Source: Pedosphaera parvula Ellin514
Lineage (GTDB): Bacteria > Verrucomicrobiota > Verrucomicrobiia > Limisphaerales > Pedosphaeraceae
DNA: 64,000 nt
Assembly: GCF_000172555.1 (NCBI RefSeq)
Contig: NZ_ABOX02000001.1
Location: 128,164-192,163 of the forward strand
Direction: 5' to 3'
Shown here: piece after piece, positions 47,450 through 64,000 of the stretch
Layout of the letters: every line of letters starts with the position of its first letter
Position numbering within the stretch: the first letter of the stretch is position 1
Translations under genes and position numbers: made by a program
Notes under the pieces: model-generated
Seen by the model: only the letters and a program-made list of their open reading frames with translations
What the model was told of the DNA's origin: nothing
Databases searched by the model: none

Positions 47450-48304
47450 TCAAGTGCTGGTTTCCAGTATGTATCGACAACGTGGAAACTGAGAGCAACC
47501 CCAGAAGGTTCCACCGGTATTGCAACCCTTTTGTGCTGTCCTGAGCACCATCTCGGCTTCGCACTTAGGGCAGAACTTTCGCGTGTCATTGAAAATGGCA
47601 AGCAGATCAAGGTCAAGTCGAGCGTTGGTCTGATCGAGCAGGGTTGATAGGTCACTTTCGTTTAAAATCTCGATGCTATGTTGTTCAGCCAATTGTTTTG
47701 CATCACCCGTATAGCCGCGCAAGGTGATGAAGATGCCTCGCTGAATACCTGCATGGGTCAGTGCGCCAAGGAACTCACGTATGCCTCGGACGTTCACATT
47801 CCAACTCTTCCAGTGTTTGCACTGAATCGCAGTTTGCTGGCCGTCCTTTTCGATGATGAGATCGATGCCGCCATCAGGATTGGCACCACCGCGCCGTGTC
47901 ACCTGATAGCCGAGTTTCCAATAAATGACCTCAATAGCTTTCTCAAACTGGAACCAGTCGATGGTCCGCAGTTTTTCAACCAAGTCCTTTGTCGTCAGAG
48001 GTGGCGGCGGGGTAGGGGACGCCTTGAGAGTGCTGGTTTGAGTTGCTGTCGTAAGTTGGTTGGGAGCCAACGAATCGCCATCACTTGGGAAGAATCTGGT
48101 ATTAAGGCGTGCGTCTTCGCGCTGCCTCGAACGCATTATCAACCAGACAAGCAAGGCGACCAAGCCCATGCCTGCCGCGATCAGGGCCAGTCCTTGGAGC
48201 ATCTGCCTTACCTTTGGCACGAACATGGCTCCAATAATTACTAGTCCAACCAGTTTTGCCACCGGTTCAATCCAGTCATCCTCGCGCTTTCTTCTCCGTC
48301 CCAT
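47450..48304 (-). CDS. Membrane-anchored Mrr-type restriction endonuclease with C-terminal zinc ribbon
   Basis: 284 aa from the ATG at 48304 (MGRRRKRED). Two membrane helices come first (VAKLVGLVIIGAMFV and GLALIAAGMGLVALLVWLI). The Mrr-like nuclease domain lies at ~105-225: FEKAIEVIYWKLGYQV, then GGIDLIIEKDG and IQCKHW, i.e. the D...(E/Q)-x-K core with Q-C-K. The C-terminal topoisomerase-type zinc ribbon is CPKC...GCSQFPRC. Mrr-family enzymes cut modified or foreign DNA. The membrane anchor suggests action at the envelope, for example on incoming DNA; this is inference. It is divergent from a small secreted-protein gene. Confidence 0.85.
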   Translation of the reverse strand: MGRRRKREDDWIEPVAKLVGLVIIGAMFVPKVRQMLQGLALIAAGMGLVALLVWLIMRSRQREDARLNTRFFPSDGDSLAPNQLTTATQTSTLKASPTPPPPLTTKDLVEKLRTIDWFQFEKAIEVIYWKLGYQVTRRGGANPDGGIDLIIEKDGQQTAIQCKHWKSWNVNVRGIREFLGALTHAGIQRGIFITLRGYTGDAKQLAEQHSIEILNESDLSTLLDQTNARLDLDLLAIFNDTRKFCPKCEAEMVLRTAQKGCNTGGTFWGCSQFPRCRYILETST

Positions 48305-48516
48305 ATAGCCTTCTTTGACAGCAAGGAGGGTGCCATGTTTTTCCGACGGCAACTGGCCTTGGAAGATGCCAAAAAGAGATTAGCCTCCTCTTGACCGCCA
48401 TTTAGGGAGGCCATCAGTTCACTGAGTCCTGAATGGTGACAGCGAAAAGCTTGGGGAAAATGTTGACATCTCCATGCTTTAAACCTCAGATTCGGTCAAT
48501 TCAGTTCCCAATCAAG

Positions 48517-49423: not shown

Positions 49424-52400
49424 ATGGATATATTCGAGGTCCATCGCAGGATTGTAAGCGACTACGCGAGTTATATTCGCAGTTTCGTTTCTATTTCTGA
49501 CGAGGATTTGCGCCAGCACGTCGAACAACACCTCAACGGTGGTCGTCTTTGGCCAGAGCCTCTGTTGTCATTCAACCCAGCATTTGCGTCTGCTGGCCGA
49601 ATCGAAAACCTCGTTGCTTCAGGGGCGCTCTCCTCACCTTTGGGTGACGCATTTCGTGGCTACGAACTTTTCGAGCATCAATTAAAGGCGATAAAGCTTG
49701 GGGCGGCAGGAGTTGATTTCGTGGTTACATCGGGGACAGGGTCTGGCAAGTCACTCACGTACATTGCGGCGATATTCGACCATCTTTTCAAGGCTGGCAA
49801 CCCCTTGCCATCAGGAGTCACTGCCGTAGTAGTTTACCCGTTAAACGCGCTGGTGAATTCACAGGAGGAGGAATTGCGACGCTATGCAGAGAATTACCGC
49901 CAGGCACGTGGCGAAGAATTCCCAATCCGCTTTGCGAAGTTTACTGGTCAGGAAGACCTTAGCCGCAGGCAGGCACTTGAAGCTGACCCGCCGCACATCC
50001 TGTTGACTAACTATATGATGCTGGAATTGCTCCTTACGCGCGGCGGCCAGCGAACTCTCCGACAGGCCATTTACGATGGACTGCGTTTTTTGGTCTTCGA
50101 CGAATTACATACGTACCGTGGTCGCCAGGGAGCGGATGTCGGACTTTTGATTCGACGCATCCGTTCGCGCGCGAAGCATCCGGTGGTCTGCATCGGCACA
50201 TCGGCGACGATGATTTCCGGAGGAACACTGGCTGACCAAAAGCAACAAGTTGCCAAAGTAGCTGAACAGCTCTTCGGAAAACCGTTCCAGCCGGATGCGG
50301 TTATTCGAGAAAAGCTCGTGGGGCGCTTCCCTGGCGCACCTGCAAGCGAAGTGCTCAAATCGGCGGTCGCCACGCCGGTGATTCAAGATGCTCCAGAAGC
50401 CGCGTTGTTGTCGCATCCAACGGCAGCTTGGCTTGAAGCGCGTATCGCGCTCGCGGAGCGCGAAGGGGAACTGGTTCGCGGCAAACCGTTAACCTTCTCC
50501 GAAGTTGCAGATTTGCTGGCGAAGGAAACTGGGTGCTCGCTGGCCCAATGCGCTACCCATTTGCGTGAAGTATTAATTTGGCTTGGGCGAGTAAACAAGC
50601 AACTGCTGGACGCAGGTAAGCATTACACGTTTCTGCCATTCAAGCTCCATCAGTTTTTCTCCCAGACCGGGGCTGTTTATTTGACGCTGGACCGGGGCAA
50701 GCAAGAGCACAATATTCTGCAAGCTGGCTACCACATTCCGGGCGAGCCTGATCGCCCATTGTTCCCCGCCGTCTTCAGCCGCTATTCGGGCGAGACGTTC
50801 CTTTGTGTGTCAAAAGATCCAGCGGGAAGGAAGTTGATGCCGCGTGAATTCTACCCCTCGGAGGATGAGGAGGATGATCTCACGCGTGGTTATCTCATCA
50901 CAAACGTGGACGTTTGGAATCAGGAGACGGATCTCGAATTGTTGCCCGATTCCTGGCTCGACGTGAATTCCGCAGGGCAAGTCCGGGTTCAGAAGAAATA
51001 TCGAGGCCGGATGCCGCAGTGCATTTACTACGACACGCAGGGACATTGTTCTGACGAGCCGCGTGAAGGTTGGATGCAGGGCTGGTTCATGACTGCTCCA
51101 CTCCTGTTCGATCCAACCTCGGGCTTGATGCCGGATCGGCAGACGAGAGATTCCACCAAGCTCAGCCAACTCGGCACGGAAGGCCGCAGCACGGCTACGA
51201 GTATTTCTGCCTTCGCCATTCTCACACGCATGGCGGAAAGCGGCTATCGCTTGCGCGATCAAAAACTCCTGAGCTTCACCGACAATCGCCAGGATGCTGC
51301 GCTCCAGGCGGGGCACTTCAACGATTTCATGGATGTCGTTCGACTGCGCTCGGCCATTCGCAAGGCGGTCGAAACTGCCGACGGCCAACAACTCCGACTC
51401 ACGACGCTTGGTCGGGCGGTGCGCGTGGCCAGTGGTCTTCAGTTCGCGGATTATGCAACGGGGGGCTCAGACCTTCCGGAATTCCGCAAACGTATTTACG
51501 AAGAAACGCTCGAAGCCTACTTCGCTTTCCGTTCGATTCACGACCTCCGTCGCGGTTGGCGGGTGGTGTTGCCGAACCTTGAGCAATGCGCCCTGCTTGA
51601 AATTGACTATGACCATCTCGCAGAAGTCGCATCATTGGACAACTTGTGGACCGAAGTTCCACTCCTCAGTCAATTAAGCGCAACCGACCGCCGCACAGTG
51701 ATTCGCGTAACGCTCGATTTCTTCCGACATGAATTCGCGCTTCACAGCGAGACGTATCTAACGGAAGCGAAAATCAAAGAACACTCAACCAGCTTCCGTG
51801 AACGACTTCGCGCACCCTGGCGGTATGAAGACGAGGACGACATACCGACGCCCACTTCCGTGCGCACCGAATCCCTCGCTCGATACAGCCGTCGCGAAAC
51901 GCGCAGCATTGGGCCGCAAAGCGGCTATGGACGATTCGTCCGGCGATTTGTTCAAGAGAAACTGAGTCATGAACTCAAAGCTTCACCCTATCAGGACTTC
52001 ATTGAGAAACTGCTAGCGGCGCTGGAAAACAAGGCTGGTTATCTAAACAGCGTCGAGGCGCGAAATCGCGACGGTAAACCAACCCGAATCTATCAACTCA
52101 AACTCACGGAAATACTGTGGAAGTCCGGCGACGGTATAACCGTGCGCGCCGATGCCGTGAAGTTACGTGCCTACAAAGCACTGGCACTGCGACCGAATCC
52201 CTTCTTCCAAGAGGTTTACCGCCGTGACTATGGCACGGGGAAGCTGTTGCTTGCTGCCGACCACACCGGCCAACTCAACTACAAGGACAAGCAGGATCGC
52301 GAGGAACGATTCCGAGCCGAATGGAAAACCAAAGATGGTCGCGATGACGAAGCCGAGATCCGCCGCCGCTCCATCAGTTCGCTGTTCTGCTCACCAACGA

Positions 52401-54586
52401 TGGAGTTGGGTATCGACATTGGTGGCCTCAGCGTTGTCCACATGCGCAACGCGCCGCCGAATCCGGCTAACTACGCGCAACGTAGCGGACGTGCTGGCCG
52501 CAGTGGACAGCCCGCGCTGGTATTCACATTCTGCGGGTCGCAGTCGAACCACGACCGACACTATTTCAACCAACAAAGCGACTTGGTCGCAGGGCAGGTT
52601 GTGCCACCGCGCCTCGACTTATTGAACGAGGAATTGCTTCGCTCCCATCTTCACGCAGTGTTCCTGTCCGAAATTGGGCTGCCAGGATTGAAGGATTCAG
52701 TTCCGGACTTGCTGGATTTGAACCAGACCTCACTGCCGTTGCGAGAAGATGTCATCGCCGCGTTGAATCTGAAACCAGCGGAAGTCGCCCGTGTCCGCAA
52801 CGCCTTTGAGCGCGCGATTGCTGATTTCCGAGATAAGCTTGCCAGCCAGCCGACCGCCTGGTTTTCAAGCGGCTGGATTGAGACCGAACTCGGTTGTCTC
52901 CACCAAAGACTCAACGAATCAATCGAGCGTTGGCGCGGTCTCTACCGCAGTGCGCAAACGCAGCTCAACTCCGCCTCGCAGCGCATCAATAGCGGTCTGT
53001 ATCCGGCCAACAGCCCAGACTTTAAGGATGCACAGCTTGAACAGCGGCTTTCCCAGCGACAGCTTGACCTTCTCAGGAACGAAGTCACCAGCGGTGAAAT
53101 GTCGGAGTTCTACGTTTATCGCTACCTGGCCGCCGAAGGTTTCCTGCCTGGTTACAATTTCACCCGCCTACCGCTCCGCGTGATGCTCCCCGGCAGTGAC
53201 GCAAGCGTGGAGTTCATCTCCCGCCCGCGACATATCGCCTTGCGCGAATTCGGTCCGAACAATGTCATTTATCACAAGGGCCAGAAGTTCGAGATTACTC
53301 AGCTACTCGGCGATCCACCTGGCAACCGATTCGAGAATGCCGTAGTGAGCGTCAAACCGGGCTATTTCCTGCGTGGGGAAGAAGGCAAACGTGACCGTTG
53401 CCCGTTCTCAGGAGAAGATCTCACGACGCAGGTGAACAAGGAACATCTACATTACCTGCTTCAACTCGGCGAAACTCGCGCGACGCTGCGTTCGCGCATA
53501 ACCTGTGAGGAGGAGGAGCGGGTCACGAAGGGCTATGATGTCAGCACCTACTTCACACTCGACGAGCTTACACAACTCGGCCCGACCGGATTGGTGAAGG
53601 CCAGTGGTGAAGTTTTGCTGCGACTACGTTACCTGCCCACAGCGCGGCTTGTCTGGGTGAATCGCAAGTGGCGCATCGCCCGCGAGGATAAGAACGGTTT
53701 TGCAATAGACGTGAAAACAGGTGCATTTGTGAGCGACCGGCATCGTGCAGAGCTCAAAGACAAAGGTGAGTCCACGGATCATATTCGGGATGTGATGTTC
53801 TACACCACGAACATCTCCGACGCCCTTTACGTTGAGCCTGTGCCCGCTCTCGGTTTGGATGAAGACGGCGTGCTTACGCTTCAGTTTGCATTGAAGCGTG
53901 CGATGGAACGAGTTTTCCAAGTCGAACCCGCCGAGCTTGGAGTGACTGCGATTGGCGACCCGGAAAACCCGAACATTCTCTATTACGAGGCCGCTGAGGG
54001 AACGCTTGGCGTTTTGAGCCAGTTGGCTGAACAAACTGGCCCGTGGCGGCGTGTTTTGGAGGAGGCTTGGAAAGTTTGCCAGTTCGACACCGATACCACG
54101 CTCAGTCCCGCGTCCTATGACAATCTCCTCGACTACTATAACCAGCGTCATCATCCGCGTCTTAATCGGTGGCTTATAAAAGGCGCACTTGAACGTCTCA
54201 CCGCCTGTTCGTTTGAATCAGTACAGAGCCCACAGTATGCGGATTACGAGGACCACTATCAACGGCTGCTTCGTCAAATTGACGGGAGTTCCTCAACTGA
54301 GCGGGAGTTCCTCGACCATCTATACGCTGGGGGCCTGCGTCTGCCGGATGCAGCGCAAAAGCCGTATCCCGGCATTTACGTCCAACCAGATTTCTTCTAT
54401 GCGCCAAATATTTGGATGTTCTGTGACGGCACGCCCCATGACGATTCATCGGTCCACAAGGACGACGAGGCGAAACGTCAGGCTATCATTAATGCAGGTG
54501 GAGAGGTCCTGGTCTGGTATTACCGCGACAGCTTGAACGAACTTGTCCATCGACGCGGCGACATTTTCCGAAAAGTCCGAGAATAG
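49424..54586 (+). CDS. Giant DEAD-like helicase with DUF1998-like region and C-terminal Vsr-like nuclease domain
   Basis: 1720 aa. Superfamily 2 helicase motifs: Walker A in TSGTGSGKS (~102-110), motif II as DELH (226-229), SAT (260-262) and motif VI QRSGRAGRSGQ near 1018-1030. The block SFTDNRQDAALQAGHF is typical of DUF1998-linked helicases. The next ~600 residues match that family too (EFISRPRHIALREFGP; YYEAAEGTLGVL in the DUF1998-like stretch). The last ~70 residues (QPDFFY, then MFCDGTPHD and AKRQAIINAGGEVLVWY) look like a Vsr/PD-(D/E)XK endonuclease. DruE of Druantia and a DrmA-DrmB fusion of DISARM are the nearest concepts. It is the first gene of the set. Confidence 0.85.
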   Translation: MDIFEVHRRIVSDYASYIRSFVSISDEDLRQHVEQHLNGGRLWPEPLLSFNPAFASAGRIENLVASGALSSPLGDAFRGYELFEHQLKAIKLGAAGVDFVVTSGTGSGKSLTYIAAIFDHLFKAGNPLPSGVTAVVVYPLNALVNSQEEELRRYAENYRQARGEEFPIRFAKFTGQEDLSRRQALEADPPHILLTNYMMLELLLTRGGQRTLRQAIYDGLRFLVFDELHTYRGRQGADVGLLIRRIRSRAKHPVVCIGTSATMISGGTLADQKQQVAKVAEQLFGKPFQPDAVIREKLVGRFPGAPASEVLKSAVATPVIQDAPEAALLSHPTAAWLEARIALAEREGELVRGKPLTFSEVADLLAKETGCSLAQCATHLREVLIWLGRVNKQLLDAGKHYTFLPFKLHQFFSQTGAVYLTLDRGKQEHNILQAGYHIPGEPDRPLFPAVFSRYSGETFLCVSKDPAGRKLMPREFYPSEDEEDDLTRGYLITNVDVWNQETDLELLPDSWLDVNSAGQVRVQKKYRGRMPQCIYYDTQGHCSDEPREGWMQGWFMTAPLLFDPTSGLMPDRQTRDSTKLSQLGTEGRSTATSISAFAILTRMAESGYRLRDQKLLSFTDNRQDAALQAGHFNDFMDVVRLRSAIRKAVETADGQQLRLTTLGRAVRVASGLQFADYATGGSDLPEFRKRIYEETLEAYFAFRSIHDLRRGWRVVLPNLEQCALLEIDYDHLAEVASLDNLWTEVPLLSQLSATDRRTVIRVTLDFFRHEFALHSETYLTEAKIKEHSTSFRERLRAPWRYEDEDDIPTPTSVRTESLARYSRRETRSIGPQSGYGRFVRRFVQEKLSHELKASPYQDFIEKLLAALENKAGYLNSVEARNRDGKPTRIYQLKLTEILWKSGDGITVRADAVKLRAYKALALRPNPFFQEVYRRDYGTGKLLLAADHTGQLNYKDKQDREERFRAEWKTKDGRDDEAEIRRRSISSLFCSPTMELGIDIGGLSVVHMRNAPPNPANYAQRSGRAGRSGQPALVFTFCGSQSNHDRHYFNQQSDLVAGQVVPPRLDLLNEELLRSHLHAVFLSEIGLPGLKDSVPDLLDLNQTSLPLREDVIAALNLKPAEVARVRNAFERAIADFRDKLASQPTAWFSSGWIETELGCLHQRLNESIERWRGLYRSAQTQLNSASQRINSGLYPANSPDFKDAQLEQRLSQRQLDLLRNEVTSGEMSEFYVYRYLAAEGFLPGYNFTRLPLRVMLPGSDASVEFISRPRHIALREFGPNNVIYHKGQKFEITQLLGDPPGNRFENAVVSVKPGYFLRGEEGKRDRCPFSGEDLTTQVNKEHLHYLLQLGETRATLRSRITCEEEERVTKGYDVSTYFTLDELTQLGPTGLVKASGEVLLRLRYLPTARLVWVNRKWRIAREDKNGFAIDVKTGAFVSDRHRAELKDKGESTDHIRDVMFYTTNISDALYVEPVPALGLDEDGVLTLQFALKRAMERVFQVEPAELGVTAIGDPENPNILYYEAAEGTLGVLSQLAEQTGPWRRVLEEAWKVCQFDTDTTLSPASYDNLLDYYNQRHHPRLNRWLIKGALERLTACSFESVQSPQYADYEDHYQRLLRQIDGSSSTEREFLDHLYAGGLRLPDAAQKPYPGIYVQPDFFYAPNIWMFCDGTPHDDSSVHKDDEAKRQAIINAGGEVLVWYYRDSLNELVHRRGDIFRKVRE

Positions 54587-54596
54587 AAATTGCCCC

Positions 54597-57455
54597 ATGC
54601 CTTCCACCCTCACATCTCCCGGTCGTCTCGTTAGCCTTCGTGGACGGGAATGGGTCGTGTTGCCTTCCGATGACGCCGAGACCCTGTTGTTGAAACCGCT
54701 TGGCGGCTCGGATGATGAAATCACCGGGATATATCTCCCACTGGGTTTCAAGGAAGACCAGCCTGGAGAGGCAAAGTTTCCCGACCCAAAGAAGGAAGAT
54801 TTGGGCGCGTTCTCCTCAGCACGACTGTTGCTTGAGTCTGCGCGTCTCGCCTTCCGCAACGGCGCGGGCCCGTTCCGTTGCCTAGCGAAACTTTCTTTTC
54901 GTGCTCGTGCCTATCAGATGGTCCCGCTCATCATGGCTTTGCGGCACGAGCCCGTTCGTTTGCTTGTGGCAGATGACGTGGGCGTGGGCAAAACAATTGA
55001 GGCTTTGCTGATTGTGCGCGAGTTGCTGGAACGTCGCATCATTCGCCGCTTTGCTGTTCTTTGCTTGCCACACCTCTGTGACCAGTGGCAGGAGGAAATC
55101 CGTTCTAAGATTGGTATCGAGGCCGTAGTCATCCGCTCAAACACTCAGGCACGTCTCGACCGTGAAATCCACGGTGACGCCAGCGTGTTCCAACACTTCC
55201 CATTTCAAGTTCTTAGCATTGATTACATAAAGAGCGATGCCCGTCGCGATGTTTTCGTAAGCCAGTGTCCGGAACTGGTCATTCTGGACGAGGCGCATAC
55301 CTGCGCCCGTCCCAGCGGAGCAAGTCCAGGCCAACAGCAACGCCATGATCTGGTGCGACGTATCACCGAGAAAGCCGAGCAACATTTCGTGATGCTCACG
55401 GCCACGCCCCACAGTGGTAAGCCGGACGAATTTCAGTCGCTGCTCGGGTTGCTTCATCGCGATTTCGCAGCTCTCGATTTGCCTGCCGCCACGCCTGAGC
55501 AGCGAAAGCGCCTTGCGAAGCATTTTGTCCAACGTCGGCGTGGTGACGTCTTGAAATGGATGGGCGAGGACACCCCGTTCGCGAAGCGAGAGGCTGGAGA
55601 AATTTCCTACGAACTCGGGACGGGTTACGCCACGTTTTTCGACCAAGTTCTGGGTTTCGCGCGAAAACTGGTGGCCGTGCAATCCGGCCCTGAACGGCAA
55701 AAGCGCGTCCATTACTGGACCGCACTCGGCCTGCTGCGTGGCATTATGTCTAGCCCGGCTGCCGGAATTGAGATGCTACGAAATCGTTTGGAATCTCCCG
55801 AAGTTGAATCTGACAGCCCTGAGTCCGAGGAAAATCCGGTTCTCGATTCATCCGATGGCTTCTTGTTGGATGTAACGCCGAGCCAGATGGTAGGACAAAT
55901 TTTGTGGAGCGATCCGGAGAAGCGTCAGCTTGCGAACTTCGCCCGTCAACTCGAATCACTCTCTGGTGCTCAGCACGACGGCAAACTTGAAGCCGCTGCC
56001 AAGACACTCGCGGAATGGCTTCGAGATGGTTTTCAGCCCGTAGTTTTCTGTCGCTACCTTGCAACCGCGCGCTATGTTGGCGAGCAGCTTCGTTCACTGC
56101 TGAAAGCCAAGTTCAAAGACCTGCGAGTTGAGGTTGTGACCAGTGAAGACCCCGACGACGTTCGCCGCCAGCGCGTGAACGACTTGGGCAAAGTCCCGCG
56201 CCGCCTGCTGGTTGCTACAGACTGCCTCTCTGAAGGCATCAATCTCCAGGAGTCCTTCACCGCAGTATTGCATTATGATTTGCCGTGGAATCCAAACCGC
56301 CTGGAACAGCGCGAAGGCCGCGTTGACCGTTTCGGTCAGACTGCGGAATACGTGAAGGCTTACCTGCTTTTCGGTCGAGATAATCCTGTGGACGGCCTTG
56401 TGCTGGGTGTAATCCTGGAAAAGATCCGCCAGATTCGGCGCGACCGTGGAATCACCGTGCCATTCCCGGAAGACAGCAGCACCGTGCTTGATACTGTGGC
56501 GAAGGCACTCCTTTTCAACCCCGACCGCACGGTCAAAGCCAGTTCCGACAAAAGCCAACTCAAGCTCGGACTCGAAGATTTTGCTGAGGCCCGTGAAGCC
56601 GAACTTCGTATTACCCACAAAATCGAGGATGCTGCGAAGCGCGAGGATGCCACACGCTCACTGTTCGCGCAGCACTCCATCAAATCGGAAGAACTTGAAA
56701 CCGACCTCCACGAAGCCGATACCGCCATTGGTGACGTATCCGCTGTGGAACGCTTCGTTACAGGAACGCTCACCGAACTGCTCGGCGTGCAGATTGACCG
56801 CACCAAAACTGACTGGAGACTCCATGCGGGTAACATTTCAGCCTCACTTCGAGCACATCTCCCAGATGAAGCGTTTCTAGATGTGAGTTTCCGTTCCCCG
56901 ACGCCTAAGAAGCATGTTTACCTCGGTCGCAATCATCCTTTTGTCGAAGCACTCTGCCAATACGTCATGGCACACGCATTGAGTCGGCAAGTGCGCCCAG
57001 GAGAAACACATGCAGCCCGTTCCGCCGTGATGCGTAGCCAAACGGTCAGCACCAAGACCACGCTCCTACTGTTCCGCTGCCGTAATGTCATCGGCGAGAG
57101 AAATGGGCCGGCACGAATCGTCGCTGAGGAGATGCTCGTGTGGGGTTATCGCGGCTCACCAATTGATGGCGATTTCCTTAGCAACGATGAGGCAATGAGT
57201 CTGCTCAACCAGGCATGTCCTGCTGGCGACATCACACCGCAGTCTCGCGAAAACTTTTTCGACAACGAAATTAAACTTCTAGGCCAGCTTCGCAAACAGT
57301 TTGACGCTGCGGCCGAGGAGCGCAACAAGCATCTCGTCGAAGCGCATGAACGGTTCAGCCGTTTCTTCCGAGCGGGACGCTACGAAGTTGTCTATCCAGT
57401 CCTGCCAATGGATATCATGGGGCTTTACATTCTCTTGCCGGAGGCCAGCCGATGA
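54597..57455 (+). CDS. SNF2-type helicase (DrmD-like)
   Basis: 952 aa from the ATG at 54597, 10 bp after the previous stop; the longer frame from a TTG at 54543 is less likely. Helicase core: DDVGVGKTIEALL (Walker A, ~126-138), VILDEAHTC (DEAH at ~231), LTATPHSGKP (motif III region), DCLSEGINLQ (motif V) and QREGRVDRFGQ (motif VI). The Q-x-x-x-R-x-Q motif VI and the layout match SNF2/RapA-like translocases and DrmD of class 1 DISARM. A helical C-terminal ~380 residues follow. The stop overlaps the methyltransferase start as ATGA, so translation is coupled. Confidence 0.87.
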   Translation: MPSTLTSPGRLVSLRGREWVVLPSDDAETLLLKPLGGSDDEITGIYLPLGFKEDQPGEAKFPDPKKEDLGAFSSARLLLESARLAFRNGAGPFRCLAKLSFRARAYQMVPLIMALRHEPVRLLVADDVGVGKTIEALLIVRELLERRIIRRFAVLCLPHLCDQWQEEIRSKIGIEAVVIRSNTQARLDREIHGDASVFQHFPFQVLSIDYIKSDARRDVFVSQCPELVILDEAHTCARPSGASPGQQQRHDLVRRITEKAEQHFVMLTATPHSGKPDEFQSLLGLLHRDFAALDLPAATPEQRKRLAKHFVQRRRGDVLKWMGEDTPFAKREAGEISYELGTGYATFFDQVLGFARKLVAVQSGPERQKRVHYWTALGLLRGIMSSPAAGIEMLRNRLESPEVESDSPESEENPVLDSSDGFLLDVTPSQMVGQILWSDPEKRQLANFARQLESLSGAQHDGKLEAAAKTLAEWLRDGFQPVVFCRYLATARYVGEQLRSLLKAKFKDLRVEVVTSEDPDDVRRQRVNDLGKVPRRLLVATDCLSEGINLQESFTAVLHYDLPWNPNRLEQREGRVDRFGQTAEYVKAYLLFGRDNPVDGLVLGVILEKIRQIRRDRGITVPFPEDSSTVLDTVAKALLFNPDRTVKASSDKSQLKLGLEDFAEAREAELRITHKIEDAAKREDATRSLFAQHSIKSEELETDLHEADTAIGDVSAVERFVTGTLTELLGVQIDRTKTDWRLHAGNISASLRAHLPDEAFLDVSFRSPTPKKHVYLGRNHPFVEALCQYVMAHALSRQVRPGETHAARSAVMRSQTVSTKTTLLLFRCRNVIGERNGPARIVAEEMLVWGYRGSPIDGDFLSNDEAMSLLNQACPAGDITPQSRENFFDNEIKLLGQLRKQFDAAAEERNKHLVEAHERFSRFFRAGRYEVVYPVLPMDIMGLYILLPEASR

Positions 57456-60400
57456 CATTCCCCTCCATCCGCATCGAAGGCACGATTCTCTCCGGCGAAC
57501 TGCTGGCGAAGCTCGATTCTGCCGACACGCTCGGTCAGCGGCCTGCTGATTTCGGCTTCGATTCGCAAAGCAAATTGAAGGACGAAATCGTCCGTTCCTG
57601 GACGGCGGGACAGGCGTTCTACACAGCATTTCAGCACAAGCTCACCAGTGTCAAGGAAGGCGCAGCCGCCACGTCCGAGACGCGAAATCAATGGATCATC
57701 CCGCTTCTCGGTTTACTTGGCTACGCGGAACTTGAATTCCAATCGCAGTCCGAACCCGTTGGCGACAAGCCCTTCCGTATCTCGCACCACCTGCGTAGTC
57801 ACGGCGGATTTCATGTCCATATTGTCGGTGCACGTGAGTCGCTAGACAAAAAAGCGACCACTGGCCCACGCGTCAGTCCGCACTCGCATTTGCAGGAATA
57901 CCTTAACCTCACCGAGCACCTATACGGCGTTGTCACCAACGGCAAACTTCTGCGGTTGCTTCGTGATTCCACACGGCTCATCAAACTATCCTACGTCGAG
58001 TTCGATCTCGACCGGATGTTCAGTGAGGAACTGTTCGCCGACTTCGCGGTTCTTTACCGCCTCCTGCACGTCACGCGTCTGCCGCGCTCGCCGGAGAAAT
58101 CCGTCGAGTCCCTGCTCGAACGTTATCATCAGGACGCTCTCGAATCCGGCGCACGTATCCGCGATGGCTTAAGCATAGCCGTTGAGCAAGTCATTCAGGA
58201 GCTTGGCTCTGGCTTCCTCGCCCGAAACGAAAGTCTGCAAGCCGCTATTGCCAATAATTCCGTCACCGCCCGCGATCTGTATTACGCGCTGCTCCGGCTC
58301 ATCTACCGGTTGCTCTTCTTGATGGTAGCGGAAGAACGCGGCCTCCTATTCAGCGAAGCCGCCACGCAGCGCCAGCGCCGCCTTTACACCGACCATTACA
58401 GCATCGGTCGCTTGCGCCGTATTGCCGAACGTCGCTCGCTCGCTGATTCCACCAAGCACGACCTCTGGCGCGGACTGCGAAGCAGCTTCCGCCTGTTCGA
58501 GACCGACGGCCCTGGCGCTCCACTCGGACTGACTGGACTCGGCGGACAACTTTTCTCCGCCGCCGCGCTCGGTCCGCTCCAAGCCGCCGAGATCGACAAC
58601 GGAACGCTCCTCTCCGCGCTTGCCAAGCTCTCGCTCTTTCGCCAGCCGGACACCGGGCAGTTTTCGCGCGTGAACTACGGTGCGCTCGCCACGGAAGAGT
58701 TCGGCTCGGTGTATGAACGCCTGCTGGAACTCCACCCCGTCATTCATCCCGCCACAAACACGCTCCCGTCGCACTTCGCCTTCAAGCAAGCCGCTGGCAA
58801 CGAGCGCAAGACCAGCGGCAGCTATTATACGCCCTCCAGCCTGGTCGAATGCTTGCTCGACTCCGCGCTGGACCCAGTGCTCGAAGACCGCCTGAAGAAC
58901 TTTGCCAGGCTCGGCTTCAAATCCGCCGACCAAGCTGTAATCGCCTTGAAAGTCTGCGACCCAGCCTGCGGTAGCGGCCATTTCCTCATCGCCGCTGCGC
59001 AACGAATCGCCCGCCGCCTTGCACTTCTCCGCTCCAATGGCGATGAGCCAAGTGTGAGTGAACTTCGCCACACCCTTCGTGAAGTCATCAGCCATTGCAT
59101 CTATGGCGTGGACATCAATCCTATGTCCGTCGAGTTGTGCAAAGTCGGCCTCTGGCTCGAAGCGATGGAGGCGGGCAAACCACTCTCCTTCCTCGACCAT
59201 CACGTCCGGTGCGGCAACAGTCTCCTCGGCGCGACGCCTGCGCTCATTGCCGAAGGCGTTCCCGACGACGCCTTCACCGCCATCGAGGGAGACGACAAGA
59301 AAGCATGCGCTGTTCTCAAGAAACTAAACGCCCGCGAACGTCGCGGCTTTGGCGAACTCTTCGCGCTCGAAGACCGCGCCACGTTCGAGCAACTGCAACA
59401 AGCCGCCGTGGCCGTCGAAAACCTGCCTGACGATTCCGTACGCGCCGTCGAGCAAAAGTCCGCTGCCTTCGAGCAACTCCAGCACAACTGCGATTTTGAA
59501 AAGGCCACGGACCTCGCCAATCTCTGGTGCGCCGCATTCGTCATCCGCAAACGAATGGCCGATGGTGAACCGCCTCTCGCGCCCGCCGCACCCTCCGCCG
59601 CCACCGAGGCTCAAACTGCCGCAACGCAAACCGGACTGTTCGGTGAGACGTTTCAGGAATCAGCCGGGAAGGCCAAGACTCCCGCGAAAGCGACCACCCA
59701 GCCCTCCGGTCTGGCCGAAGCCGTCGGTATCACCAGCGGCCATCTCCGCGATTTTGCCAAAAGCGTGGCCTTGCCGGATGACATGATGAAGGAAGTCCAG
59801 CAACTCGCCAGACAATACAACTTCTTCCATTGGCATCTCGCGTTCCCGGAAGTTTTCCAGCGTGGCGGGTTTGGCGTGATTTTGGGTAATCCACCTTGGG
59901 AGCGCGTAAAGTTGCAGGAAAAGGAATGGTTCGCTGAACGCCGACCGGAGATTGCTGAAGCGCCCAATACCGCCGCGCGCAAACGGCTCATTGAATCACT
60001 CAAAACGGAAACGCCCGCACTGCACACAGAGTTCCAAAACGCACTCCGCCAGGCTGAGGGCGAAAGTCATGTCATGCGGACCAGCGGCCTCTACCCGCTT
60101 TGCGGACGAGGTGACATCAACCTCTATGCAGTGTTCGCCGAACGAATGAGGAACAGTCTTGGAGAAGCAGGCCGGTTGGGCGCGGTTTTGCCCAGCGGTA
60201 TTGCCACCGATGACACGACTAAGTTCTTCTTTCAGGATGTAGTCGAGCGCCGATCTCTCGTGAGTCTCTTTGACTTCGAGAATCGTCTGGGGCTCTTCGC
60301 GGCCGTGGATAGCCGGATGAAGTTCTGCCTTTTTACAAGTGGTAGCCCGGTTGGTGGGCTAGTTCACGCAGCCGAGTTCGTATTCTTCGCCCATGACGTG

Positions 60401-62107
60401 GCAGACTTGCGCGACCAGCAGCGGCGGTTCTCTCTCACTGCTGAGGACATTGCTCGACTCAATCCCAACACGCGCACTTGCCCCATCTTTCGCTCTCGCC
60501 GTGACGCTGATCTGACCAAAGTAATCTACTTTCGCGTGGCCGTGCTGTTCCGCGAAGAACCAAAAGAGGAAAACCCTTGGAGCATCCGTTTCAACACGAT
60601 GTTTCACATGTCGAGCGATTCACATCTGTTCCGCACACGGGAGCAGTTGGAAGTTGAAGGTTGGAAATTGGAAAAAAACATTTTCTTCCGTGCTGGAGCA
60701 GAATATTTACCTCTTTACGAAGCGAAGATGACAGCGCCATTTGACCACCGTGCCGCCGATGTGGTTCTAAGCGAGACAGCGTTAGTTCGGCAAGGACAGA
60801 GCGAGGCTTTGGATAAAGCGGCGCACATTAATCCCGCGAGGCTTCCTCTGCCGCGTTACTGGGTAGCGAAGCAAGCAGTCCTTGAGGCGCTGAGCAGCGA
60901 AAAACCAAATTCATTGCTCGGTTTCACGGACGTTACCAGCCCAACCAATGAGCGGACGATGCTGGCGACGGTTTTACCGATTGCAGGTGTCGGACACACG
61001 AAGCCTCTGATTTTCTCGCCACTACATCCGACGCTGATGGCGTGTCTGATGTCAAACTTGAACAGTTTTGCTTTCGACTATTGCGCGAGACAAAAGGTTG
61101 GCGGAATCCATTTCACCTACTTTTATTTGAAGCAGCTTCCTGTTCTCACACCAACCATCTACACCCAACAGTGCGCATGGAGCGGTGGCGCGCGGACCCT
61201 CAAGGACTGGCTGATGCCGCGCGTGCTGGAGCTGATCTACACGGCGTGGGACCTGGAGGCGTTCGCGCAGGACTGCGGTTGGTCTGGCCCTCCGTTCCGG
61301 TGGGACGAGGAGCGCCGCTTCCGACTCCGGTGCGAACTCGACGCCGCCTTCTTCCACCTCTACGGCCTGAACCGCGACGATACCGCGTACATCCTCGATA
61401 CCTTCCCCATCGTGAAGCGGATGACGAGAAAAGCACGGCCACTACCGCACCAAGACCGCATCTCGACTCTACGATGCTTCGCCGATAGCCAGCGGCACTG
61501 GCAGGCGTTTGTCAGTCGTGGAATCCGCCGCCAGCAGATGCGCAGTGCCTGCCATCCGCCAATGGAAACTGCCTCTGCCAAGCCGCAGACTTCTCCCGAG
61601 TTTGCATCGTTCGCAGAAGCCTATCCTTCAAACGCGGCCGACAAGCTTGTTTGTGCCCTCACATTGGAAATCGTCGCATGGCGAGAAAACATACCGAGCA
61701 GCGATCATCTCGACGCGCTGATTCTTGCGACTCATCCGGATTTGTGCCGAGTCTTCATGAGCAGTGGTAGCAAATCCCAATTGGATTCATGGACCGCATC
61801 CATAAAAGCCGAACTCAAGGCGATCCACTCCAAAGGTTTGAAGTGGGTTCAATGTCTCAGTTATTTGGAGGAGCACCGGAGTGCACTCAAGATCGGAAGA
61901 ACTGAAACTGGTCGTCCCATTCATCAAGGGGTGCATTTTGATTCGACCCACCAGTCGTTTCCATGTCAGCACGGGGCGCTGGCTGTCTTTGCCCTCAGTC
62001 TCCTGGATTCTTTAAGGGAAAGGCGGCAAAAGAATTCGCTGTCCCCAGAACAAACCGCAGCTGTTGAAACCTTTGACCAATTGCACAGCAAATATGCCCT
62101 GGCATAA
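57452..62107 (+). CDS. Eco57I-like N6-adenine DNA methyltransferase (DrmMI/PglX-like)
   Basis: 1551 aa. The N-terminal ~450 residues contain blocks of this large methylase family (SPHSHLQEYLNLTEHLYGVV, KLLRLLRDST, LYRLLHVTRLPRSPEKS). Motif I is CDPACGSGHFLIAA (~501-515), binding S-adenosylmethionine. The catalytic motif IV is NPPW (~812-815), which marks N6-adenine enzymes. A large C-terminal target-recognition region follows (from ~900). No clear nuclease residues were found in the N-terminus, although type IIG relatives carry one there. It could mark host DNA while the helicases act on unmarked DNA, as in DISARM. It couples by ATGA to the SNF2 gene. Confidence 0.88.
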   Translation: MTFPSIRIEGTILSGELLAKLDSADTLGQRPADFGFDSQSKLKDEIVRSWTAGQAFYTAFQHKLTSVKEGAAATSETRNQWIIPLLGLLGYAELEFQSQSEPVGDKPFRISHHLRSHGGFHVHIVGARESLDKKATTGPRVSPHSHLQEYLNLTEHLYGVVTNGKLLRLLRDSTRLIKLSYVEFDLDRMFSEELFADFAVLYRLLHVTRLPRSPEKSVESLLERYHQDALESGARIRDGLSIAVEQVIQELGSGFLARNESLQAAIANNSVTARDLYYALLRLIYRLLFLMVAEERGLLFSEAATQRQRRLYTDHYSIGRLRRIAERRSLADSTKHDLWRGLRSSFRLFETDGPGAPLGLTGLGGQLFSAAALGPLQAAEIDNGTLLSALAKLSLFRQPDTGQFSRVNYGALATEEFGSVYERLLELHPVIHPATNTLPSHFAFKQAAGNERKTSGSYYTPSSLVECLLDSALDPVLEDRLKNFARLGFKSADQAVIALKVCDPACGSGHFLIAAAQRIARRLALLRSNGDEPSVSELRHTLREVISHCIYGVDINPMSVELCKVGLWLEAMEAGKPLSFLDHHVRCGNSLLGATPALIAEGVPDDAFTAIEGDDKKACAVLKKLNARERRGFGELFALEDRATFEQLQQAAVAVENLPDDSVRAVEQKSAAFEQLQHNCDFEKATDLANLWCAAFVIRKRMADGEPPLAPAAPSAATEAQTAATQTGLFGETFQESAGKAKTPAKATTQPSGLAEAVGITSGHLRDFAKSVALPDDMMKEVQQLARQYNFFHWHLAFPEVFQRGGFGVILGNPPWERVKLQEKEWFAERRPEIAEAPNTAARKRLIESLKTETPALHTEFQNALRQAEGESHVMRTSGLYPLCGRGDINLYAVFAERMRNSLGEAGRLGAVLPSGIATDDTTKFFFQDVVERRSLVSLFDFENRLGLFAAVDSRMKFCLFTSGSPVGGLVHAAEFVFFAHDVADLRDQQRRFSLTAEDIARLNPNTRTCPIFRSRRDADLTKVIYFRVAVLFREEPKEENPWSIRFNTMFHMSSDSHLFRTREQLEVEGWKLEKNIFFRAGAEYLPLYEAKMTAPFDHRAADVVLSETALVRQGQSEALDKAAHINPARLPLPRYWVAKQAVLEALSSEKPNSLLGFTDVTSPTNERTMLATVLPIAGVGHTKPLIFSPLHPTLMACLMSNLNSFAFDYCARQKVGGIHFTYFYLKQLPVLTPTIYTQQCAWSGGARTLKDWLMPRVLELIYTAWDLEAFAQDCGWSGPPFRWDEERRFRLRCELDAAFFHLYGLNRDDTAYILDTFPIVKRMTRKARPLPHQDRISTLRCFADSQRHWQAFVSRGIRRQQMRSACHPPMETASAKPQTSPEFASFAEAYPSNAADKLVCALTLEIVAWRENIPSSDHLDALILATHPDLCRVFMSSGSKSQLDSWTASIKAELKAIHSKGLKWVQCLSYLEEHRSALKIGRTETGRPIHQGVHFDSTHQSFPCQHGALAVFALSLLDSLRERRQKNSLSPEQTAAVETFDQLHSKYALA

Positions 62108-62116
62108 AAATTGGCT

Positions 62117-64000
62117 ATGAACATTCTCAAATCACTGTCAAGGCAACTGACTCGAAGCACACCCGATGTTTGGGTAAGCCGAATTGCGATTTATAGAAAA
62201 TTGGCAGATGCGCCGATCCGAGACGTTTCCCTGAAGAAAGGGCTGAACATTGTTTGGGCTGAAGAGCCCGAGGGTGAAGATGACAAACGCGACATTGCCG
62301 GGCATAGCGCAGGCAAGACAACATTCTGCCGATTGCTCCGATACGTGCTTGGAGAGAAATCATTCGCCAACAAAAGTAATACCGGGTTAATCAAAAAGGC
62401 GTTTCCAAATGGCTATGTTGGCGCAGAGCTATTTGTGAAGGGGGTTAAGTGGGCGGTTTTACGTCCGTTGGGTGAGAATCGGAACTCCTACGTGCTCAAG
62501 GAATCGACTATCGAAGTACTGATTGAAAAAAAGGGCGATGCCGCATATCAGGATACTTATCCGGCAAAAATTGGACTGGATGCTCTGCTTGACCCGCTTG
62601 AATCCGCCACGGTCGTCCGCACGAATGAACCCATCAAATGGGGGCACCTTTTGGCGTGGTGCACCAGGGATCAAGAAGCCCGATTCCAAAATATTCATGA
62701 CTGGCGGTCTCCGCGAAGTGATTCAGATTGGCCAGCATTCAGATTCCCGAAATCGGACCCGCTTTTCGTCATGCGGGTCGTTCTCGGCCTCTTTCTTCCC
62801 GATGAGCTTGTCGGTGAAGAAGCTCTATCTAAACTCCAACAATCGCTAGAGAGGGCGGAGGCCGCGCTGGAAGTGGCCAAAAAGGAACCAGCCTACTGGC
62901 GCGAGCACTACGACACCAAGGCTCGGCAACAGCTTAAGCAAATATTACCGAAGGACGGTGGAGCAATCGAGAGTGCCCCGCTATCCTCGGACGAAATGCT
63001 TCCAGATCTTAAGCGTTACACAGATAAAGCGAAATATGAGTTGGGCGAGCAGATCGGGAAGTTGGAAAAATCCGAGCTTGCACTCCAAATTGAAATTAAC
63101 TCCCTGAACGAAACAATTGCCGCCAACAAAACCGAATTGCAGCAATTGGCCGGTCTTTTCACCCTCGAATCCACGGCAGAATGCGAGGCAAGCGCTGGAT
63201 TGAAAAGAAATGAAGACTTCAGACAAAAGACGCAAGAGAACAAGGATAAAACCTGTCCCTTCGGAGATGTTTTAATCGGTCAGTGCAGTTATGTCTTGGA
63301 AAGACAGGAGCTAGTTAAACGCAATGCAGTCCAAGACGCTCACACGCTCGAGCAAATGGAAGCCAAACGAGCCAGTGCACGAGCAAAGGTCGCCTCACAA
63401 CAAAAGGCTTTGAAGCACGGCATCCAATCCAACGAACTGAAGCGGACGAATCTCACAAAGCAGCAGAGCAAGCTAGTGGTTGATATAGCACAGAAAAAGG
63501 TCATCCAAACCGAATTGGATGCTGACTTGGAGAATTTAACATTGTGGAAATTGCGCCACGAAGCTCCAGACAAATATGCAAAATTACAGGAACACTTTGG
63601 AATCATCGAAGGTTTGCGGAAACAAGTTGAAGCGAAAGAAACTGATTTGAATCGCCTCCTTGCCGAACACGACACCAATCGCGATCTTCTCAACACCATC
63701 TTTTCAGCAGCGGCAAAGAGAGTGCTGCCATCAACAAATTACGACGGCCGGGTTATGTTGGAGGATCGCGAGTTGCATTTTCAAATCACCCACGGCGGAA
63801 CGATGACGGGCGAGGCGATGGAAACGCTTGCGGTCTTGTTAGCCGACATCAGCTGCCTCATATACAACTCATTTTCGTCGCGGTCCTATCTTCCGGGATT
63901 TCTGTTGCACGACAGCCCGCGCGAGGCGGACTTGGGCTTGCGTCTTTATCGTGGCTTTTTCCGATTTGCGGCGCAGTTGGAATCTGACTTCCAAGAGCTT
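62117..64000 (+). CDS. SMC/Rad50-like ATPase (cut by right edge)
   Basis: At least 628 residues; the frame is open to the window end. It starts at the ATG 9 bp after the methyltransferase stop. Near the N-terminus AGHSAGKTTFCRLL is the Walker A (GHSAGKT), after GLNIVWAEEP. A long coiled-coil region (~235-550) follows, with a CPFGDVLIGQC segment in the middle that could be the hinge or a Cys-pair hook. Walker B-like FLLHDSPREADLG appears near 595-610, as in DUF2326-type coiled-coil ATPases. The layout is that of SMC/RecN-like proteins that sense or move DNA. It is the fourth member of the methyltransferase-helicase set. Confidence 0.8.
   Translation, partial: MNILKSLSRQLTRSTPDVWVSRIAIYRKLADAPIRDVSLKKGLNIVWAEEPEGEDDKRDIAGHSAGKTTFCRLLRYVLGEKSFANKSNTGLIKKAFPNGYVGAELFVKGVKWAVLRPLGENRNSYVLKESTIEVLIEKKGDAAYQDTYPAKIGLDALLDPLESATVVRTNEPIKWGHLLAWCTRDQEARFQNIHDWRSPRSDSDWPAFRFPKSDPLFVMRVVLGLFLPDELVGEEALSKLQQSLERAEAALEVAKKEPAYWREHYDTKARQQLKQILPKDGGAIESAPLSSDEMLPDLKRYTDKAKYELGEQIGKLEKSELALQIEINSLNETIAANKTELQQLAGLFTLESTAECEASAGLKRNEDFRQKTQENKDKTCPFGDVLIGQCSYVLERQELVKRNAVQDAHTLEQMEAKRASARAKVASQQKALKHGIQSNELKRTNLTKQQSKLVVDIAQKKVIQTELDADLENLTLWKLRHEAPDKYAKLQEHFGIIEGLRKQVEAKETDLNRLLAEHDTNRDLLNTIFSAAAKRVLPSTNYDGRVMLEDRELHFQITHGGTMTGEAMETLAVLLADISCLIYNSFSSRSYLPGFLLHDSPREADLGLRLYRGFFRFAAQLESDFQEL

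What the first reader, a model, noticed from the sequence alone, without database searches (positions are those of the whole stretch)
54380..54586. Vsr-like nuclease domain fused to the end of the giant helicase
The last ~70 residues read QPDFFY, MFCDGTPHD, then an AKRQAIINAGGEVLVWY helix-strand. This is the order of Vsr and related PD-(D/E)XK endonucleases (an Asp in a strand, a D-G-x-x-H motif, then a K-R helix). It would give the helicase its own cutting activity, a part that DISARM normally supplies through the PLD protein DrmC.
Basis: partly seen in the sequence, partly recalled or inferred. Interest (0 to 1): 0.65.

Follow-up and report, generated by a model that had tools for sequence, protein, structure and literature searches.

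The report
DNA-cutting domain on an antiviral helicase
A bacterial antivirus helicase carries a small predicted DNA-cutting domain at its end; the domain is well conserved, but the same fusion was already described for this kind of defence system (ARMADA).

Summary
Residues 1622-1716 of the 1720-aa helicase (window 54287-54571) form a predicted PD-(D/E)XK nuclease of the Vsr/DUF559 (EDxHD) type. Profile comparison aligns it to Vsr (Prob 96.7, E 3.4e-10) and DUF559 (95.7), against 0.3 for a helicase control. The predicted fold (pLDDT 90) matches I-Bth0305I and Vsr best. Glu1626, Asp1656, Asp1668 and His1672 are conserved in 90/90, 88/88, 86/88 and 87/88 rows with letters there.

The system is not DISARM. 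The order YprA helicase, BrxHII/DrmD-like SNF2 helicase, PglX-like methyltransferase is that of ARMADA Type I, and Bell et al. 2025 (PMC12458937) already state that ARMADA YprA helicases end in a predicted active Vsr-type nuclease. So this is a new member of a known kind. Nuclease activity and its need in defence are untested, here and in the sections of that paper I read.

In passing: the helicase belongs to a clade (68 of 90 rows) lacking the DUF1998 zinc cysteines, and a fourth, SMC-like gene follows.

The parts
49424..54586 (+). YprA/MrfA-family (DruE-like) SF2 helicase, 1720 aa, with fused C-terminal nuclease; DEAD domain residues 84-264, Helicase_C 974-1028, degenerate MZB/DUF1998 1486-1551 (20.3 bits, under the Pfam cut-off of 24.2)
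   Evidence: model of residues 1085-1720 matches MrfA 6znp (Foldseek E 2.5e-9) and chain B of DrmAB 7s9v (E 1.1e-5)
54287..54571 (+). Vsr/DUF559-type PD-(D/E)XK (EDxHD) nuclease domain, residues 1622-1716
54299..54301 (+). Glu1626, predicted active-site Glu of the first helix; aligns with the invariant Glu of the Vsr alignment A4 (E25 of its first row)
54389..54391 (+). Asp1656 of PDF, predicted metal ligand; aligns with the invariant Asp of A4 (D51 of its first row)
54425..54427 (+). Asp1668 of FCDG, predicted metal ligand; aligns with the residue before Gly in FVDG/FVNG/FVHG of Vsr relatives
54437..54439 (+). His1672, predicted catalytic His; a His is invariant here in the Vsr (A4) and DUF559 (A5) alignments
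54597..57455 (+). SNF2 helicase, BrxHII/RapA/DrmD-like (ARMADA ArmA-like); ATG 10 bases after the helicase stop
57452..62107 (+). PglX/Eco57I-like DNA methyltransferase (DrmMI-like, ARMADA ArmB-like), 1551 aa, overlapping the SNF2 gene by 4 bases
62117..64000 (+). SMC/DUF2326-like gene, 684 aa, running off the window (its stop lies 171 bases beyond the window end); possible accessory fourth gene

Best explanation
This is the helicase-nuclease of an ARMADA Type I antiphage operon. Its C-terminal domain is a metal-dependent PD-(D/E)XK endonuclease of the Vsr/DUF559 (EDxHD) superfamily with an intact predicted active site: Glu1626, Asp1656, Asp1668, His1672. Most likely mechanism: the YprA motor loads on exposed or 3'-tailed single-stranded DNA of an invading phage, translocates using ATP, and feeds DNA to the tethered nuclease, which nicks or cuts it. 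The PglX-like methyltransferase marks host DNA, and the BrxHII/DrmD-like SNF2 ATPase helps sense or remodel the target. Shown here: domain, predicted fold class, conserved residues, operon order. Inferred: catalysis, metal, substrate, self/non-self marking, division of labour.
For: Profile-profile alignment of the domain (78 sequences) with Vsr: Prob 96.7, E 3.4e-10; with DUF559: 95.7, E 9.1e-9; with a helicase-core control: 0.3. AlphaFold2 pLDDT 90.1. VIA-align 2 matches: I-Bth0305I Z 8.9, Vsr-DNA 1cw0 Z 7.9, 3hrl Z 7.3, 1vsr Z 6.8. Active-site conservation. The scan that found 80 of the relatives used residues 931-1545, which leave the nuclease out, so its presence was not selected for there. 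Operon order in 46 of 54 scanned loci with at least 8 kb downstream. Bell et al. describe the same architecture in ARMADA I/II and show that an ARMADA II system protects E. coli (PMC12458937 sections 5-8 read). Closest tested analogue: DruE of Druantia III cleaves DNA with ATP and Mg2+, through a different (PLD) nuclease (PMC13192584 section 11 read; passages).
Against: The window sequence alone matches no Pfam family at E up to 1. A profile search of PDB sequences puts an unrelated dehydrogenase first (E 0.19) and the two Vsr-like entries at 0.45 and 0.46. Foldseek finds no PDB match at E 0.001 or better for the isolated domain; its best, I-Bth0305I, has E 0.14 and TM 0.40. By the tool's own note, Z under about 8 may mean only a common arrangement. 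The canopy matches to MrfA and DrmAB have good E-values but low TM-scores (0.20-0.28) over multi-domain alignments. Bell et al. section 6 lists Walker and methylase mutants, no nuclease mutant. No activity data exist for this protein.
Confidence: 0.88

Rival explanations
1. The domain keeps the Vsr/PD-(D/E)XK fold but no longer cuts; it serves as a DNA-binding or regulatory module, as predicted for Druantia I and II helicases.
For: Bell et al. call the C-terminal Vsr domains of Druantia I/II predicted inactivated (PMC12458937 section 8). Activity of the ARMADA domain is untested in what I read.
Against: All four predicted catalytic positions are invariant or nearly so in 91 rows, in a domain whose mean column identity is 51%.
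Confidence: 0.08
2. The locus is a DISARM Class 1 system or variant with the nuclease moved onto the helicase.
For: The SNF2 protein scores to DISARM DrmD (290 bits) and the methyltransferase to DrmMI models.
Against: DrmD is far under its curated cut-off (290 of 610 bits); the helicase scores 15.8 bits against a DrmA cut-off of 950; the canopy is fused to the helicase instead of a separate DrmB; no PLD domain appears in the five genes scanned.
Confidence: 0.03
3. The locus is a Druantia Type III-like system with a Vsr nuclease; Bell et al. say such helicases exist.
For: The best PADLOC hits of the helicase are DruE models (E 1.7e-74), and the closest solved chain is 9tu7_Y, a 2108-aa DEAD/DEAH box helicase.
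Against: The DruE matches are partial; the upstream neighbour matches no PADLOC family at E 0.01; the SNF2 and methyltransferase genes are those of ARMADA and recur in 46 of 54 testable loci.
Confidence: 0.04

Closest known systems
ARMADA Type I (Bell et al. 2025, PMC12458937)
   Same: Gene order YprA helicase, BrxHII-like helicase, PglX-like methyltransferase; helicase ending in a predicted active Vsr-type nuclease.
   Different: The window protein has no CxxC motif and lacks the DUF1998 four-cysteine cluster. An SMC/DUF2326-like gene follows; neither 'DUF2326' nor 'SMC' occurs in that paper's main text (supplements not seen).
Vsr very-short-patch-repair endonuclease (PDB 1vsr, 1cw0; PF03852)
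   Same: Predicted fold and order of conserved residues: E, PD, (D/N/H)G, H.
   Different: Lacks the Trp-rich loop after the His (about 18 gap columns); fused to a helicase; the window sequence has no Pfam Vsr match.
DUF559 / REase_MTES_1575 nucleases (PF04480, PF18741; PDB 3hrl)
   Same: Order E ... DF ... DGxxH ... D ... R ... G..V and the short loop; 38 and 29 of 78 alignment members match these models at E up to 1.
   Different: The window's own member does not match them at E up to 1; DUF559 domains occur as small proteins and on other large proteins (open frames).
DruE of Druantia III (PMC13192584; PDB 9tu7-9tuc may belong here, inferred from the sequence match only)
   Same: Giant YprA helicase with a C-terminal nuclease; ATP- and Mg2+-dependent cleavage shown for DruE.
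   Different: DruE carries two PLD domains, not a Vsr-type nuclease, and partners with DruH.
Type III-B CoCoNuT CnuH helicase (PMC11090510, passages seen)
   Same: A Vsr-like PD-(D/E)XK nuclease fused directly to a defence helicase.
   Different: Described there as part of a CoCoNuT system, not an operon of the ARMADA gene set.

Membership tests
ARMADA Type I | Operon YprA helicase, then BrxHII/RapA-like helicase, then PglX-like methyltransferase | tested here: met
   the same order in 46 of 54 loci with at least 8 kb downstream
ARMADA Type I | C-terminal predicted active Vsr-type nuclease on the YprA helicase | tested here: met
ARMADA Type I | No GajB-like UvrD helicase (ArmD) directly after the three genes, as Type II has | tested here: met
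   The next gene is a 684-aa protein with no Pfam match at E 0.01, about 35% identical over 240 aa to an annotated DUF2326 protein; genes further on were not scanned
ARMADA Type I | Zinc-binding CxxC modules described for the lineage (a described property, not the naming criterion) | tested here: not met
   No CxxC in the 1720-aa protein
ARMADA Type I | BrxA-like insert after RecA1 | not tested
   that part of the protein was not modelled
ARMADA Type I | Placement in the ARMADA I clade of the published YprA tree | not tested
   the paper's reference proteins were not fetched
YprA/MrfA helicase family | SF2 core plus OB-CON-DUF1998 canopy fold | tested here: met
   (MrfA 6znp Foldseek E 2.5e-9, though TM-score only 0.28)
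YprA/MrfA helicase family | DUF1998 four-cysteine zinc cluster (lost in Dpd according to Bell et al., who still count Dpd in the family) | tested here: not met
   PASYDNLLDYYNQ in place of ACYxCLLSYxNQ
Vsr (PF03852) mismatch endonuclease | Conserved E, D, D/N/H, H in a PD-(D/E)XK core | tested here: met
Vsr (PF03852) mismatch endonuclease | Pfam Vsr match and the Trp-rich loop | tested here: not met
   no match at E up to 1 for the window member, 5 of 78 members (best E 0.0083); loop gapped
DISARM | DrmA plus separate DrmB plus PLD nuclease DrmC | tested here: not met
   (five genes scanned)
Druantia III | DruE with PLD domains next to DruH | tested here: not met
   no PLD match in the Pfam scan at E 0.1; upstream neighbour has no PADLOC match at E 0.01
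Active nuclease | Metal-dependent DNA cleavage | not testable with these tools
   needs biochemistry

The most novel reading that the evidence does not exclude
The window's helicase belongs to a broad zinc-free branch of ARMADA Type I that has not been set apart. In it the canopy keeps the MrfA-like fold without the DUF1998 zinc cluster, while the nuclease stays intact. A sub-branch adds an SMC/DUF2326-like fourth component that may sense DNA or load the nuclease, making a distinct ARMADA subtype.
Probability: 0.3. Interest if true: 0.4.

Novelty: new member of a known kind. Interest (0 to 1): 0.2.

Why it matters
It supports, by separate evidence, that one polypeptide in this defence operon couples a DNA motor to a predicted cutting domain, and it names the four residues to mutate. 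The ARMADA preprint lists no nuclease mutant in its section 6, so whether cutting is the effector step is a direct and simple test.

Tried and rejected
Pfam on the window's domain alone gave no family at E up to 1, so relatives were needed. Profile search of PDB sequences was weak: an unrelated acyl-CoA dehydrogenase at 0.19, then I-Bth0305I and 3hrl at 0.45 and 0.46. Foldseek on the domain alone gave nothing at E 0.001 or better. DISARM and Druantia III were considered and set aside. A paper search with 'EDxHD', 'Vsr' and 'endonuclease' listed 3 papers, by their titles on introns and transposable elements, not opened. A search with 'Vsr', 'DUF1998', 'helicase' and 'defense' listed 4 papers. 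PMC13316683, PMC12904381 and PMC11090510 were opened for passages only.

Rows dropped: L005-L020 (16 short loci) had no match to the C-terminal query and were not used further; most hold only about 2-4 kb, so this says nothing about their nuclease. L001 is the window itself. L003 was dropped from the count set (same contig as L036). L082, L110, L111 and L112 had no match to the C-terminal query; L082 ends at the locus edge, and the other three are distant viral-contig helicases that were not examined further. L029, L033, L044, L045, L065, L087 and L108 were left out of the structure alignments (truncated, masked or duplicate), and L073 and L103 also out of A3. L103 was too short for the tree. 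In one search I chose by eye 22 of the 30 Vsr loci and 15 of the 30 DUF559 loci, leaving out partial, weak or oddly placed matches.

Full report
What was claimed. All three strings are there, at 54383-54400, 54416-54442 and 54470-54520 of the 1720-aa ORF 49424-54586. A loose motif for the set is rare in shuffles: 46 of 20000 for the 151-aa tail and 23 of 2000 for the whole protein. That motif was written after seeing the tail, so the better test is conservation.

Relatives. Glu1626 is conserved in 90 of 90 rows with a letter, Asp1656 in 88 of 88, Asp1668 in 86 of 88, His1672 in 87 of 88. One exception (L044) lies in a run of X. The other (L054) has His for Asp1668; by my recollection of its sequence, E. 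coli Vsr also has a His there. Rows span many bacterial phyla and include two archaeal contigs, L065 and L096.

Family. The window's domain alone matches no Pfam family at E up to 1; of the 78 members of alignment A2, 38 match DUF559, 29 REase_MTES_1575 and 5 Vsr at that limit. I built a Vsr alignment (22 sequences) and a DUF559 alignment (15) from genome searches. Profile comparison of A2 gives Prob 96.7 and E 3.4e-10 to Vsr, 95.7 and 9.1e-9 to DUF559, and 0.3 to a helicase-core control; Vsr against DUF559 gives 97.7. The alignment puts Glu1626, Asp1656 and Asp1668 on the conserved Glu, Asp and Asp/Asn/His of Vsr, and His1672 by the Vsr His (one gap apart). Vsr's Trp-rich loop after the His is missing. 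So it is a Vsr-superfamily nuclease, not a Vsr repair enzyme.

Structure. AlphaFold2 on 151 residues with 78 sequences: pLDDT 90.1, pTM 0.75. Foldseek ranks I-Bth0305I first, but only at E 0.14. VIA-align 2 on Foldseek's top 1000 gives I-Bth0305I Z 8.9 (rmsd 3.1, 90 aligned), Vsr-DNA 1cw0 Z 7.9 (2.8, 92), 3hrl Z 7.3 (3.1, 85) and 1vsr Z 6.8 (3.1, 90). Chains of protist mitochondrial ribosomes score Z 7.3 to 7.9, and Bax1, VRR-Nuc and TnsA (6.7-6.5) and Holliday-junction resolvases (under 5) score lower. Z values near 8 can arise from common arrangements, so I rest the claim on fold, profile and residues together. A second model, residues 1085-1720 (pLDDT 89.5), matches MrfA (6znp, E 2.5e-9) and chain B of DrmAB (7s9v, E 1.1e-5), with low TM-scores of 0.28 and 0.20 over the whole multi-domain model; this is consistent with the YprA-type canopy.

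System. Downstream lie an SNF2 helicase (54597-57455; DrmD 290 bits against a cut-off of 610) and a PglX/DrmMI-like methyltransferase (57452-62107). Among 80 scanned loci, 54 have at least 8 kb downstream; 46 of these show SNF2 then methyltransferase downstream. Of the other eight, four have the methyltransferase (one of them also the SNF2 gene) upstream only, one has SNF2 downstream and methyltransferase upstream, one has SNF2 only, and two show neither within the stretch held. This is ARMADA Type I as described by Bell et al. 2025 (PMC12458937; abstract, sections 5-9 and figure legends read). [quoted passage not shown] The finding is therefore already in print for the kind. Section 6 lists mutants in Walker and methylase motifs only. 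A Vsr-like nuclease fused to a defence helicase is also described for Type III-B CoCoNuTs (PMC11090510, passages).

Mechanism. Inferred from DruE of Druantia III, which prefers 3'-tailed DNA and cleaves long DNA with ATP and Mg2+ (PMC13192584, section 11 and passages read): the motor exposes and feeds DNA, and the tethered nuclease cuts. Marking of self by the methyltransferase is inferred by analogy with DISARM and BREX. None of this was tested for the window protein.

By-product. The zinc pattern C..[AG]C[YH].C of DUF1998 is absent in 68 of 90 rows and present in 22, and the two groups are the two sides of one branch (support 100; quick tree, midpoint root). The rows were picked by closeness to the window, so these numbers are not the true proportions. 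The window is on the zinc-free side and has no CxxC anywhere. Bell et al. mention loss of this cluster in Dpd; in the sections and passages I read I saw no mention of its loss in ARMADA. Supplements were not available.

Noticed in passing
window 54056-54163 and whole protein 49424-54586: The helicase lacks the DUF1998 four-cysteine cluster and any CxxC motif; on a quick tree this loss marks one side of a branch, 68 of 90 rows against 22 that keep the cluster.
   Followed up: partly
window 62117-64000, continuing to L173:2835: A 684-aa SMC/DUF2326-like gene starts 9 bases after the methyltransferase stop; a homolog was found after the methyltransferase in 5 of 44 relatives with at least 600 bases left there (L021, L027, L032, L033, L036; L032 and L033 are near copies).
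   Followed up: partly
window 47450-48352 (-): Mrr-type restriction endonuclease with a topoisomerase-type zinc ribbon upstream of the operon, on the opposite strand.
   Followed up: no
L025, L026, L046, L048, L049, L074-L077: Stretches of about 1.4-3.3 kb between the SNF2 and the matched methyltransferase frames in some relatives suggest inserted accessory genes or undetected gene ends.
   Followed up: no
window 54597-57455, PADLOC model PDLC02853: A model labelled DpdE matches the window's SNF2 protein over nearly its whole length (E 1.4e-174), although the NCBIfam DpdE model scores far under its cut-off (168 of 500 bits); that PADLOC model may really describe ARMADA proteins.
   Followed up: no
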